DNA from: Tepidisphaeraceae bacterium
Lineage (GTDB): Bacteria > Planctomycetota > Phycisphaerae > Tepidisphaerales > Tepidisphaeraceae
Reading direction: 5' to 3'
Length of the DNA stretch: 64,000 bases
Assembly: GCA_035998445.1 (NCBI GenBank)
Contig: DASYHQ010000023.1
Location: forward strand, 62,001 to 126,000
Position numbers and translations under genes: made by a program. The notes below the pieces were generated by a model. The model worked only from the letters and a program-made list of their open reading frames with translations, had not been told where the DNA came from and made no database searches. Positions 57,223 through 64,000 of this stretch are shown in pieces (within the stretch, counting starts at the first letter, position 1; each line of letters begins with the position of its first letter).

Positions 57223-57807
57223 TCAGTTCCCCCCGTTGAGGGCGAAGTGGCCGCGGTCGGTCTTCTTGAAGCGGCTGCTGTCGCCCTTGACGGTGATCTC
57301 CCGCAGGATCGCGCTGTACAAGGTCGCGGCGGGCGTGGGGGCTGCGGTCGTCCACAGGCCCTGTTCCTGCATCCGGGCCACCATCGTCTTGCACTGCAGG
57401 GGCTCGTCGGCCTGTTGAAGGACCTGCGCGGCCGCGTCGAGGCAGGTCAGCTTGCCCGCAGGCTTCGCGGTCGTCTCTTCGGGCTTCTTAGCCTCTTTAG
57501 CCGGCGTTGCCACCGCTGCCGTCGCCTTCGCCTTTGCGGGCCGTTTTGCGCGTGGTGCGACCTCGGCGGGCTCAGGGTCGCCTACGGGCGCGATCGCCTC
57601 GCGTTGGGCCTCTGGCGCGCGCTGCGGGGCCTCGGGTTCCGCAGCCGCCGGGCGCAGGTGGCGCACGTCCTTGACCCGCACGGGCTTGCCCATGTCGCTG
57701 ACGGCGTTCCACCCGGTCTTGGCCGGGCCGAGGATGGTCACCCCTACCCACCGGCTGCCGACCTTCGCCTCGTACGCTTCGCCCACTTGTACCTGGTCCT
57801 TCGTCAT
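57223..57807 (-). CDS. HARE-HTH domain protein
   Basis: One hundred and ninety-four residues from ATG 57807 with TAGGAG 6 bases upstream. An N-terminal beta module (VGEAYEAKVGSRWVGVTILG) is followed by an Ala/Pro/Glu/Lys-rich linker and a C-terminal HARE-HTH (HB1/ASXL) domain: LTCLDAAAQVLQQADEPLQC, KTMVARMQEQGLW, ATLYSAILREITVKGDSSRF, KKTDRGHFALN. These winged helices bind DNA and often accompany base-modifying systems. A second HARE-HTH protein is encoded at 60717. Confidence 0.8.
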   Translation of the reverse strand: MTKDQVQVGEAYEAKVGSRWVGVTILGPAKTGWNAVSDMGKPVRVKDVRHLRPAAAEPEAPQRAPEAQREAIAPVGDPEPAEVAPRAKRPAKAKATAAVATPAKEAKKPEETTAKPAGKLTCLDAAAQVLQQADEPLQCKTMVARMQEQGLWTTAAPTPAATLYSAILREITVKGDSSRFKKTDRGHFALNGGN

Positions 57808-57864
57808 GTTCGCTCCTACATTGAACTCCTGAAGGGGCCGGCCATCCCGGCCCCGCGTGGGACC

Positions 57865-57890
57865 ATGTGTCCATGGGTGGCGGGACACAT
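57865..57890. promoter_or_regulatory. Operator-like inverted repeat between divergent genes
   Basis: ATGTGTCC and GGACACAT, perfect 8-bp arms around 10 bases, in the 118-base gap between the leftward HARE-HTH gene and the rightward gene at 57926. Another pair, GGGGCCGG/CCGGCCCC, lies at 57834-57854. Arm centres two helical turns apart suit a dimeric repressor. Confidence 0.5.
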
Positions 57891-60716: not shown

Positions 60717-62243
60717 ATGAGTGAGTTTCTGCGAGTTGCCGAAGCCCTAATGCTGCACGAGCAGCGCCCGATGCGACCGAGGGAATTGGTCCAGCTCGGG
60801 TTGACGCGCAGGCTCTTTTCTGACCGTAGGGCGGGAAAGACGCCTTGGCAGACAATGAAGTCGAAGCTGTCGGTACACGTCCGGCGGAAGGGGAAGAACT
60901 CGACGTTTGTTAGGACCGGCCCCAACCAGTTTTTCTTGCGTCGGCTGGTGCCGGGCGATGTGTACGAGGCACCCCCTCAACAGAAGCCAGAGTCTACCGA
61001 GCAGGTACTGGTGTTCCCGAGCGCGCTATTGCGTACGCGCGATCGATTTCAAGGTATTAGTCGGAACTTTCACCGGCTCCAGGCCCGCATACTAAAACCG
61101 GACGTGTCATTCCACATCGACCGTCTCCGCGCCGAAAGCGATAATGATCACAAGCAGGTCCTGACTTACGTCATGATCACGCGGCGCGGGCGGGTTCTGG
61201 CCTTCAAACGCGGCAGCTATAATCGCGTCGAGGACTTCCTGCGTGGAGCCCACTGCATCGGGTTCGGTGGCCATGTTTCAAAGACTGACGTTGACCTTTT
61301 CAGCCTTTCTGACATGGGGGTCGTCCGAAGCGCGAGTCGAGAATTGTTCGAGGAACTCCGACTGCCGGCGAAGGACATCGAACGTCTGAAGGTCGGCAAG
61401 GGTCTAAAGCTGGTCGGCCTCCTAAATGACGACTCATCGCTGGTCGGTCAACGCCACCTCGCCTTTCTTTTCACGTACGAGGTGAGCAATGATCGCGCGT
61501 GGGCCAAACCTGAGCGTGGCGAGAAGTCGATCACGCAGCTCCGGTGGCTGAGTCCAAATTCCGGGACGGTGCCGATTTGGGACTTCGAGTATTGGTCACA
61601 GCTTTGTCTCCGCGAATACTTCCCTCAGATCGCTCACGCAGTTCCTCAGCACCGCATTGTTCGGCGTGTGCCCCTCCGCCCCCCGCATCTGCTCTGTGTC
61701 CTGGGTGAGGTTGGGAGCGGAAAATCTGAAGCCACCCGCTTGATCACACGCGAGTTTGACTACGAAGAAATTAACTCAGGAAGGATTGTCGCCGAAATCC
61801 TCGGCATCCCTCCAGTCGGAGAATACGGACGGGACAGGTTTCAACAAAAGGCAGGGGAATTCATAAAACGTGCCGATGGTCCACAGCGCCTCGCTGACGC
61901 GATTTGGACAAGAGTACAGAAGGTTTCATCGGGAAAAGTACTTATCGATGGAATACGCCAGCGCACGACTCTTAACTGCCTTCAACAATTGGCGGGAAAC
62001 CTTCAAATAGGCGTGCTCTATGTCCACACCCTGCCCGATCTGGCGTACAAGTTCTACCGGGCACGCGAACAACCACGGCTTTCCATTTTCGAGTTCCTTG
62101 AACGTCGGAACGCAGAGGTCGAGCGGGACGTTGCAGGCATGATTTCAGTAGCCGACGCGGTGCTTTATAATTGGATCGGGCGAGCCGAGTATCAGCAGGC
62201 GATCTGCGACCTCATGGAGACAGTCATGAAAGAGCAGGTCTAA
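60717..62243 (+). CDS. HARE-HTH-Nudix-P-loop kinase fusion protein
   Basis: Five hundred and eight residues from ATG 60717 (GTG 60666 is a longer option). Three parts: (1) HARE-HTH-like winged helix, residues about 1-75 (FLRVAEALMLHEQRPMRPRE ... FVRTGPNQFFLR); (2) Nudix-like domain, about 110-280, with VLTYVMITRRGRVLAFKRGS, HCIGFGGHV and RELFEELRL (REUxEE kept, Gly of the box replaced by Arg, long insert before it); (3) P-loop nucleoside/nucleotide kinase, about 320-500, with GEVGSGKSEATRLI near 330 and EINSGRIVAEIL. It could sense or alter modified nucleotides on DNA. Head of a tight four-gene operon. Confidence 0.75.
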   Translation: MSEFLRVAEALMLHEQRPMRPRELVQLGLTRRLFSDRRAGKTPWQTMKSKLSVHVRRKGKNSTFVRTGPNQFFLRRLVPGDVYEAPPQQKPESTEQVLVFPSALLRTRDRFQGISRNFHRLQARILKPDVSFHIDRLRAESDNDHKQVLTYVMITRRGRVLAFKRGSYNRVEDFLRGAHCIGFGGHVSKTDVDLFSLSDMGVVRSASRELFEELRLPAKDIERLKVGKGLKLVGLLNDDSSLVGQRHLAFLFTYEVSNDRAWAKPERGEKSITQLRWLSPNSGTVPIWDFEYWSQLCLREYFPQIAHAVPQHRIVRRVPLRPPHLLCVLGEVGSGKSEATRLITREFDYEEINSGRIVAEILGIPPVGEYGRDRFQQKAGEFIKRADGPQRLADAIWTRVQKVSSGKVLIDGIRQRTTLNCLQQLAGNLQIGVLYVHTLPDLAYKFYRAREQPRLSIFEFLERRNAEVERDVAGMISVADAVLYNWIGRAEYQQAICDLMETVMKEQV

Positions 62244-62858
62244 ATGGATGGAGGCTACGACGAAGGCTACAAAAAGTGCAGCTGCTTCTGGGGCACCCAG
62301 CCCGGAAGTCTGATCCTGCGTTTACGGGACATTGTGGGCGACTTTGCGGGGCTGCGCGTCCTAGATGCTGGATGTGGCGAGGGGAAGAATGCCGCGTTTC
62401 TGGCAGGGCTAGGTGCTTCCGTTGATGCGTTCGACGTGTCCGAAACGGCCTTAGAGCACGCCCGGATGCTGTGGCCTGACCGCTCGAATATCGAATGGCA
62501 GATCGCAGACGCGAGACAGTTACCGATTTCCCACGACTCGTACGACATCGTCATCGCATATGGACTGTTTCACTGCCTTCAAAATCAGCGAGAAGTCGTG
62601 GATTTGGCGCACCGCTTGATGCGCTGCACACGGCGAGGCGGCCTCCACGTGGTCTGTACGTTCAATCATCGCCATCAAGAGTTGCACGCACATCCTGGTT
62701 TCTCGCCGGTATTGCTCCCTCACGTTTTTTTCGAAACGTTGTACGCAGGTTGGAGCATGATCCATCACTCGGATACCGACCTGCATGAGACTCACCCTCA
62801 CAACAACTTGCCACACAAGCACTCGATGACGCGCCTCATAGCCCGGAAGGAGGTGTGA
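62244..62858 (+). CDS. Class I SAM-dependent methyltransferase
   Basis: Two hundred and four residues. SAM site: GLRVLDAGCGEGKNAAFLAG (motif I), FDVSETALEHAR (motif II), WQIADARQLP, YDIVIAYGLFHCL (motif IV region). It resembles TehB-type small-molecule methyltransferases more than DNA methylases, since no DPPY-type motif is present. The C-terminus is His-rich (HSDTDLHETHPHNNLPHKHS). ATG follows the previous stop directly, so translation is coupled. Substrate unknown; a nucleotide or a small toxic compound would fit the neighbours. Confidence 0.8.
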   Translation: MDGGYDEGYKKCSCFWGTQPGSLILRLRDIVGDFAGLRVLDAGCGEGKNAAFLAGLGASVDAFDVSETALEHARMLWPDRSNIEWQIADARQLPISHDSYDIVIAYGLFHCLQNQREVVDLAHRLMRCTRRGGLHVVCTFNHRHQELHAHPGFSPVLLPHVFFETLYAGWSMIHHSDTDLHETHPHNNLPHKHSMTRLIARKEV

Positions 62859-62860
62859 AC

Positions 62861-63694
62861 GTGATCTGTCCAGTCGAGTTGCGTTGGCGCTACCGTGAGG
62901 AGCGGATACTTCCATTCATCGGCGCTGGTTCGTCCATGTCCGTTTCGTGGTCCGACTCATATGGCGTAAACAGAAAGGGACCATCCTGGGAGGACTTGGT
63001 TGCTCAAGCCGCACACCTGCTCGGATTCGAGCACCCGTCATTAGCTCGTGTGCGCGGCGCTGACCTCCAGATATTGGAATACTTCAAGAGGAAGAACAAT
63101 CAGGAAACTGCGAAGCTCACAAACTGGCTCGGCAAGTACATGGACCCACCTGATGATGCCCTTCGAAATGCGCCAATCCTTCGCGAACTGGTTGCCCTCG
63201 ATAAGTGCCGATTCTTCTACACGACGAACTTCGACAACTTCTTGGAGCGCGTCTTTGCGTTGCACAAGCGACCGCATTCCGTGGTCGCGTTCGAAGCCGA
63301 GATGGGAATCGAGCGTACTTGCGAGATTGTCAAGTTTCACGGTGACCTTGACCACCCATCGCAGATCGTCTTAACGGAATCGGATTATGAGAAACGGCTG
63401 GCTTTGTCCACGCCAATGGATCATCGCCTTAGGGCGGATTTGCTAGGTCGAGTCGTTCTCTTCATCGGGTACAGTTTCCGCGACCCGAACGTGTCATATT
63501 TGTTTCGGCTTTTCACGGATCAACATTGGGAGCAGCCCAATTCCTTGGGTGGGGACAGGGCATACATCGCAGTCTCAGATCCGTCAGACTTTGAGTATGA
63601 GTTGTTCGAGGCGCGACGAATAAGGGTGATTCCGATCAGCGGGAAAAACCGTACAGAAGAGATGGCCCAGTTGCTAAATGAGATGAGGAGTTAA
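62861..63694 (+). CDS. SIR2-like domain protein
   Basis: About 277 residues from GTG 62861 (AGGAGG 7 bases upstream; GTG 62855 overlaps the previous stop). SIR2 fold: ILPFIGAGSSMS (NAD-binding GAGxS), FFYTTNFDNFLERVF (catalytic Asn), IVKFHGDLDHP (catalytic His), VLTESDYEKRL, VVLFIGYSFRDPNVSYLF. This is the prokaryotic SIR2-like class that, in Thoeris ThsA and DSR systems, destroys NAD+ during phage infection. No extra sensor domain is fused, so activation must come from operon partners. Confidence 0.85.
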   Translation: MICPVELRWRYREERILPFIGAGSSMSVSWSDSYGVNRKGPSWEDLVAQAAHLLGFEHPSLARVRGADLQILEYFKRKNNQETAKLTNWLGKYMDPPDDALRNAPILRELVALDKCRFFYTTNFDNFLERVFALHKRPHSVVAFEAEMGIERTCEIVKFHGDLDHPSQIVLTESDYEKRLALSTPMDHRLRADLLGRVVLFIGYSFRDPNVSYLFRLFTDQHWEQPNSLGGDRAYIAVSDPSDFEYELFEARRIRVIPISGKNRTEEMAQLLNEMRS

Positions 63695-63698
63695 TCCC

Positions 63699-64000
63699 AT
63701 GGCGAGTCCTATTACGGTCGTGTACGTGACGACCTCCAATTTCAAGGAAGAAGAGTGCAAGCTCATCGTCGAACATTGCACGCTACCCAGCGGATCGCCG
63801 GTGAAGGGCAATTTCGAGTTCGATTTTCGAAAGGAGCCCATTCCTGAGACGCTGGAAGTCAACATCGAGCAGATGGTCCGCGCTGAGGTCCGCGCCGCCT
63901 ACTCCAAATTCCGAATCCCCTGCATCGTTGAACATGCAGGGTTAATCTTCGAGAATTATAGGGCAGTTTGGTACCCGGGGGGGCTGACGAAGCCGATGTG
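63699..64000 (+). CDS. ITPase (HAM1/RdgB-like) protein, cut by window end
   Basis: First 100 residues from ATG 63699 (GAGGAG 8 bases upstream). ITVVYVTTSNFKEEECKLIV matches the TSNxxK entry of non-canonical purine NTP pyrophosphatases; later LEVNIEQMVRAEVRAAYSKF and PCIVEHAGLIFENYRAVWYP GGLTKPM align with the family centre. In typical enzymes the central motif is ED/DD-x-GL; here it is VEHAGL, so His replaces a metal- or base-binding Asp. Fourth gene of the operon; it could hydrolyse an altered nucleotide or act as a nucleotide sensor. Confidence 0.7.
   Translation, partial: MASPITVVYVTTSNFKEEECKLIVEHCTLPSGSPVKGNFEFDFRKEPIPETLEVNIEQMVRAEVRAAYSKFRIPCIVEHAGLIFENYRAVWYPGGLTKPM

What the first reader, a model, noticed from the sequence alone, without database searches (positions are those of the whole stretch)
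60717..64000. Candidate undescribed defence or nucleotide-surveillance operon: HARE-HTH-Nudix-kinase, methyltransferase, SIR2, ITPase-like
Four tightly coupled genes combine a DNA-binding winged helix fused to a Nudix-like and a P-loop kinase domain, a SAM methyltransferase, a SIR2-like NAD-binding domain and a HAM1-like pyrophosphatase. The motifs are seen directly. SIR2-like NADases are known effectors of anti-phage systems, and Nudix, kinase and ITPase enzymes act on modified or unusual nucleotides. I infer a system that senses or makes a nucleotide signal (perhaps phage-modified) and triggers NAD+ loss. It lies next to a mobile element, as defence genes often do. I do not know of a named system with this exact set.
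Basis: partly seen in the sequence, partly recalled or inferred. Interest (0 to 1): 0.88.

Follow-up and report, generated by a model that had tools for sequence, protein, structure and literature searches.

The report
Methyltransferase-kinase relative of Kongming phage defence
This is a conserved bacterial gene set, probably an antiviral alarm, in which dedicated enzymes appear to make an unusual methylated nucleotide that switches on an enzyme destroying the cell's NAD+; its sensor-effector half resembles the known Kongming system, but its signal-making half is different and apparently undescribed.

Summary
Four abutting genes encode a HARE-HTH/Nudix/adenylate-kinase-like fusion, a TehB-fold SAM methyltransferase, a SIR2 protein and a HAM1-like protein (complete just past the window edge). 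The set is recurrent: a scan of GTDB genomes found 21 further loci with the same four genes, in several arrangements and phyla. The SIR2 and HAM1 proteins are relatives of KomC and KomB of Kongming, where dITP binding activates the NADase. The HAM1 copies have lost the catalytic Asp, as in KomB. Kongming's deaminase is never present here (21 loci versus 24 deaminase loci, no overlap). The base-reading motif also differs: SMR in 24/24 deaminase-type, SQ[SA] in 24/24 methyltransferase-type (one evolutionary change). A fifth gene was found: a Dam adenine-DNA methyltransferase abuts the set in seven non-alphaproteobacterial genomes, including this one, and is the only Dam there; alphaproteobacterial copies lack it, and all 12 of those genomes have a CcrM-like enzyme. 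Best reading: a Kongming-like immune system with a different, probably methylated adenine-type signal, dependent on N6-methyladenine. Family relationships are shown; messenger, trigger and anti-phage activity are inferred. A new variant of a known kind.

The parts
60717..62243 (+). HARE-HTH / Nudix / adenylate-kinase-like fusion protein (508 aa)
   Evidence: ORF; Pfam HARE-HTH 2.1e-6; AF2 model with Nudix Tm1382 Z 20.2 and AdkA-like kinase Z 19.7; start codon chosen from homologues
60747..60944 (+). HARE-HTH domain (predicted modified-DNA reader)
   Evidence: Pfam PF05066, residues 28-93 in the GTG numbering
60999..61631 (+). Nudix domain; GFGGHV and RE..EE glutamates invariant in homologues
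   Evidence: VIA-align 3e57 over model residues 95-305; invariant E209, E212, E213
61680..62231 (+). adenylate-kinase-like P-loop domain (GxxGSGKS, DGIR, R..FQ)
   Evidence: VIA-align 3lw7/3h0k over residues 322-505; conserved motifs
62244..62858 (+). class I SAM methyltransferase, TehB fold, distinctive subfamily (FWG..., HPHN..H.HS.TR)
   Evidence: Pfam; AF2 pLDDT 93, best PDB hits TehB; invariant columns
62855..63694 (+). SIR2-like NADase, KomC relative; GAG, TTN.D, KFHGD, GYS retained
   Evidence: Pfam SIR2_2 4.2e-26; phmmer KomC 8zsf 4.1e-34; motifs
63699..64000 (+). HAM1-like sensor, KomB relative, catalytic Asp replaced by His (VEH); the gene runs on 352 bases past the window (L002:9699-10352). 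Beyond it, outside the window at L002:10356-11186 (-), lies the abutting Dam-family DNA N6-adenine methyltransferase
   Evidence: HAM1. Dam: TIGR00571 1.4e-63, PF02086 4.8e-46, adjacent in seven loci

Best explanation
A Kongming-like immune operon with a different messenger. The HAM1-like protein has lost its catalytic residue and works as a nucleotide sensor; when it binds its ligand it activates the SIR2 NADase, which depletes NAD+ and stops the infected cell (inferred by homology to KomB-KomC). The ligand is not made by a deaminase. The methyltransferase and the adenylate-kinase-like domain are proposed to make it: a methylated, adenine-type (deoxy)nucleoside triphosphate. The fused HARE-HTH would read DNA state and gate the kinase, and the Nudix domain would remove the nucleotide in healthy cells. 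N6-methyladenine in host DNA, put there by the operon's Dam or by the host's CcrM, is an input: either as a self mark read by HARE-HTH, or as the source of N6-methyl-dAMP when a phage degrades the chromosome. Shown: gene set, homology, retained and lost catalytic motifs, motif switch, Dam adjacency. Inferred: all biochemical steps, the trigger, and anti-phage function.
For: SIR2 and HAM1 match KomC (4.1e-34) and KomB (4.3e-20) structures and a second HAM1/SIR2 complex, 9v0g. Kongming mechanism: KomA, phage kinase and host NDK make dITP, which activates the KomBC NADase (PMC12774641, PMC12948488). The HAM1 catalytic Asp is His or Gln in every copy that could be scored, of both types; the base motif is SMR in 24/24 deaminase-type and SQ[SA] in 24/24 methyltransferase-type loci. 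21 further four-gene loci, including inverted and relocated fusion genes, none with a deaminase. Kinase domain closest to an AMP-bound adenylate-kinase relative. Dam abuts the set in seven non-alphaproteobacterial loci and is the only Dam found in those genomes; 12/12 alphaproteobacterial hosts have a 361-401 aa RAMA/CcrM-like protein and no adjacent Dam. Flanks hold HmaC, MADS-like, type I RM and ThsA-like SIR2 genes in some loci.
Against: No experiment. The MTase fold is TehB-like and names no substrate. The motif switch is one change on the HAM1 tree and the alphaproteobacterial copies are one clade, so both correlations count as single events. CcrM is expected in almost any alphaproteobacterium, so 12/12 alone proves little. 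L072 has both flanks and no Dam or RAMA match; L056 and L057 could not be judged. Two Dam copies (L050, L053) read DPTY instead of DPPY. Loss of the Arg makes dITP less likely as ligand, but does not identify the base.
Confidence: 0.6

Rival explanations
1. Ordinary Kongming in new clothes: the sensor still recognises dITP (or another 6-oxo purine), the phage supplies or releases it, and the fusion and MTase only regulate or clean up.
For: SIR2 and HAM1 are KomC/KomB homologues. Many HAM1-SIR2 pairs carry no modifying enzyme nearby, e.g. Pantoea and Archangium, so the core may not need one.
Against: No deaminase in any methyltransferase-type locus; the Arg of the SHR/SMR base motif is replaced in 24/24 copies; the MTase and fusion travel with the pair across many phyla.
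Confidence: 0.15
2. The HARE-HTH/Nudix/kinase and MTase act as the restraint: Nudix destroys an activating nucleotide, and phage interference with that activity releases the SIR2 toxin, as in a toxin-antitoxin or guard system.
For: Tight linkage; Nudix catalytic glutamates invariant; the fusion gene can be inverted next to SIR2-HAM1; HTH-Nudix proteins without kinase sit beside CHAT, TIR and caspase genes on plasmids.
Against: Does not explain the conserved kinase and MTase active sites or the Dam gene.
Confidence: 0.15
3. A housekeeping or detoxification operon for modified nucleotides, unrelated to phage.
For: Nudix, ITPase-like and kinase folds are typical of nucleotide-pool sanitation; TehB-like MTases detoxify.
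Against: HAM1 lacks its catalytic Asp; SIR2 relatives are NADase effectors; sporadic spread; mobile and defence neighbours; decayed copies (L071, L082, L102).
Confidence: 0.07

Closest known systems
Kongming (KomABC)
   Same: HAM1-like sensor with lost catalytic Asp and SIR2 NADase of the same families, encoded side by side
   Different: No KomA deaminase; instead a MTase, an own adenylate-kinase-like domain fused to HARE-HTH and Nudix, and often Dam; SIR2-HAM1 gene order reversed; base motif SQ[SA] instead of SMR
HAM1/SIR2 complex of PDB 9v0g-9v57 (closest to Archangium loci L075/L076/L121)
   Same: Same two protein families, same SIR2-HAM1 gene order, same larger HAM1 clade
   Different: No MTase or fusion gene found beside the Archangium pairs; motif SP[LF]/SAS; no paper found for it
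HARE-HTH proteins of restriction and Dnd/BREX systems (PMC10853773, PMC12839542)
   Same: HARE-HTH as a predicted reader of modified DNA in a conflict system
   Different: There fused to nucleases; here to Nudix and a nucleotide kinase
Thoeris ThsA, DSR2 and other SIR2 NADase defences
   Same: SIR2 NADase effector domain
   Different: Different sensors and signals; only the effector domain is shared

Membership tests
Kongming (KomABC) | KomC-type SIR2 NADase | tested here: met
   phmmer 8zsf 4.1e-34; GAG, TTN.D, KFHGD motifs kept
Kongming (KomABC) | KomB-type HAM1 protein with lost catalytic Asp | tested here: met
   phmmer 8zsg 4.3e-20; VEH
Kongming (KomABC) | KomA adenosine deaminase gene in the locus | tested here: not met
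   No match in the window, L002 or any of 21 MTase-type loci; 24 other loci have it
Kongming (KomABC) | HAM1 base motif SMR and membership of the KomB clade | tested here: not met
   SQS; on the other side of a branch with SH-aLRT 98
Kongming (KomABC) | dITP as activating signal | not testable with these tools
   Needs binding and NADase assays
Kongming (KomABC) | Dependence on a phage-encoded nucleotide kinase | not testable with these tools
   The operon encodes its own kinase-like domain, which suggests otherwise
HAM1/RdgB ITPase (enzyme) | Catalytic Asp (VED/IED motif) | tested here: not met
   VEH in window protein and homologues
Dam family (gene after the operon) | Dam profile over cut-off, DPPY motif | tested here: met
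   TIGR00571 215 bits against cut-off 114.85; DPPY
TehB tellurite methyltransferase | NCBIfam tehB equivalog cut-off | tested here: not met
   46.5 bits against 219.5, although TehB is the closest fold

The most novel reading that the evidence does not exclude
A self-genome alarm: the host marks its own DNA with N6-methyladenine (operon Dam or CcrM). When a phage degrades the chromosome, N6-methyl-dAMP is released. The fused kinase (and perhaps the MTase) turns it into a triphosphate that cells do not otherwise hold, and the HAM1 sensor reads it and fires the SIR2 NADase. DNA methylation would then be the stored precursor of an immune messenger.
Probability: 0.2. Interest if true: 0.95.

Novelty: new variant of a known kind. 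Interest (0 to 1): 0.82.

Why it matters
Base-modified nucleotides as immune messengers are known from very few systems, with dITP the one documented in the literature I could read. A second class, with its own methyltransferase and kinase and a visibly changed sensor pocket, would show that this is a general signalling principle with interchangeable chemistry. The linkage to Dam or CcrM opens a testable question: whether adenine methylation of the host genome feeds or licenses an immune signal.

Tried and rejected
Phage records: no match for the fusion or the HAM1 by protein search; viral contigs: none for the fusion or MTase, and five for the HAM1, of which the one read (L045) is a true Kongming prophage. 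Considered that the fusion might be the widespread Nudix found in 160 of 392 genomes of the phylum: the listed matches cover essentially only the Nudix part. Considered that Dam belongs to the mobile element: rejected because it abuts the set in seven unrelated genomes, up- or downstream. Control: no Dam match in the deaminase-type genome loci; only two IMG/VR prophage contigs (L045, L046) have a distant one, several kb from KomABC. Promoter and terminator scans gave no more than chance. No paper describing the set or PDB 9v0g was found; the original Kongming paper was not found in the library.

Full report
OBSERVATION. The window ends inside an operon. Extending the contig completes it: fusion 60717-62243, MTase 62244-62858, SIR2 62855-63694, HAM1-like 63699-64352, then a convergent Dam gene at window-equivalent 64356-65186 (L002:10356-11186). 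Genes abut or overlap by a few bases. Pfam supports HARE-HTH, MTase and SIR2 over cut-off and Nudix and kinase below it; the full HAM1 protein is over cut-off. The AlphaFold2 model of the fusion (19-row alignment, mean pLDDT 87.8) gives Tm1382 Nudix Z 20.2 over residues 95-305 and adenylate-kinase-related proteins 3h0k/3lw7 Z 19.7 over 322-505. The MTase model (pLDDT 93) is closest to TehB, but falls far below the tehB equivalog cut-off.

CONSERVATION. A genome scan with a HAM1 alignment gave 80 loci. Searching their ORFs with the window proteins showed 21 loci with fusion, MTase, SIR2 and HAM1, in Nitrospirota, Armatimonadota, Acidobacteriota, Pseudomonadota, Nitrospinota, Verrucomicrobiota and Bacteroidota; an Actinomycetota locus (L057) lacks only the MTase, at a contig end. 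The set is collinear in most; in L061, L063, L067 and L069 the fusion gene is inverted downstream. Identity to the window proteins is mostly 31-60%. In L072, L074 and L085 the SIR2 and HAM1 are of a divergent lineage, while L072 and L074 keep close fusion and MTase genes, so sensor-effector pairs have diverged or been exchanged. This scan was led by HAM1; the reverse test, led by the fusion, found full-length fusions in 3 of 397 Hyphomicrobiales genomes (one seeded), 1 of 396 Acidobacteriota (seeded) and 1 of 392 in the window's phylum (the window itself), and the two unseeded ones also lie beside SIR2 and HAM1. MTase-led searches of 178 genomes of the phylum of L050 and 178 of the order of L065 found only the seeds, plus one weak match.

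KONGMING RELATIONSHIP. phmmer against PDB gives KomC 4.1e-34 for the SIR2, and for the HAM1 9v0g 1.1e-23 and KomB 4.3e-20. Kongming uses KomA deaminase, a phage nucleotide kinase and host NDK to make dITP, which activates the KomB-KomC NADase (PMC12774641, PMC12948488). A Kongming-type locus on a Zymomonas plasmid was used for comparison. Deaminase genes occur in 24 of the 80 loci and never with the fusion or MTase. In the HAM1 family the ITPase catalytic Asp is His or Gln throughout, and the motif aligned with ITPA Ser-His-Arg is SMR in all 24 deaminase-type copies and SQS or SQA in all 24 methyltransferase-type copies that can be scored. From my knowledge of ITPA/RdgB structures, the His-Arg pair contacts the 6-oxo group of hypoxanthine or xanthine; its loss argues for a different base. 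On the HAM1 tree the two types lie on either side of a branch with SH-aLRT 98, so this is one change and not many.

DAM. The gene after the operon is a Dam (TIGR00571 215 bits). Relatives abut the set in L050, L053, L054, L074 (upstream) and L055, L085 (downstream). In these seven genomes it is the only D12 methylase found. None of 12 alphaproteobacterial loci has one (Fisher p = 1e-4 against seven of eight judged others; but the alphaproteobacterial copies are one clade). All 12 alphaproteobacterial genomes have one RAMA protein of 361-401 aa open frame, the length and domain expected of CcrM (my knowledge; Caulobacter was the only control genome to ring), whereas of the 11 others only L052 has a RAMA match. 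L072, on a conjugative-type element, has neither; L056 and L057 are cut by contig ends.

CONTEXT. The window copy lies next to plasmid- or phage-like genes: RepB primase, AAA_25, ParB-DNA methylase. Elsewhere the flanks carry integrases or resolvases, HmaC (L053), MADS-like (L068), type I RM (L058) and ThsA-like SIR2 genes (L064, L068). HTH-Nudix proteins lacking the kinase adjoin CHAT genes on Leisingera and Agrobacterium plasmids, the latter also near TIR and caspase-like genes, which suggests that HTH-Nudix is a sensor or regulator module used with different effectors.

MECHANISM. Homology makes a nucleotide-gated NADase the most likely output (about 0.85 by my judgement). The MTase and kinase are the likely makers of the nucleotide, since they stand where the deaminase and the phage kinase stand in Kongming (about 0.6). 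An adenine-type ligand is suggested by the AMP-binding kinase relative and the Dam/CcrM pattern, but is not shown (about 0.35). The role of 6mA, as self mark for HARE-HTH (a domain proposed to read modified DNA, PMC10853773, PMC11037411) or as precursor, is open.

LIMITS. No experiment; the substrate of the MTase is unknown; correlations rest on few evolutionary events; several loci are from fragmented metagenome assemblies; the novelty statement is limited to the libraries searched (PADLOC 2023, NCBIfam 2026, open-licence PMC papers), in which the original Kongming paper was not found.

Noticed in passing
window 57223-57888 (-): A second HARE-HTH protein (221 aa, domain at the C-terminus, 1.6e-9) about 3 kb upstream of the operon.
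   Followed up: no
L145:337-1998, L146, L147, L148: In four Hyphomicrobiales genomes relatives of the kinase domain sit in 543-570 aa proteins; the one scanned (L145) is a fusion to adenylosuccinate synthetase (4.8e-43), a possible purine-modifying pair.
   Followed up: partly
L053:7911-10568: Downstream of the Bryobacterales copy: HIT-domain protein, dCTP deaminase (1.3e-31) and a TCAD9 protein, perhaps another nucleotide-based defence set.
   Followed up: no
L035, L036 (plasmids): HTH-Nudix genes without kinase directly followed by CHAT-domain genes; in pTi of Agrobacterium also next to TIR and caspase-like genes.
   Followed up: partly
L042:5437-6783: Bradyrhizobium plasmid p195_1: a small NUDIX hydrolase gene directly before a SIR2 gene of the same family, without an annotated HAM1, a possible further sensor type.
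   Followed up: no
L127:6764-8272 and L129:6986-8449: In two Bacillota genomes the HAM1 and SIR2 parts lie in one open frame (503 and 488 aa), i.e. a natural sensor-effector fusion.
   Followed up: no
L071, L082, L102: Truncated or broken remnants of the HAM1 or operon, as expected of defence genes under turnover.
   Followed up: no
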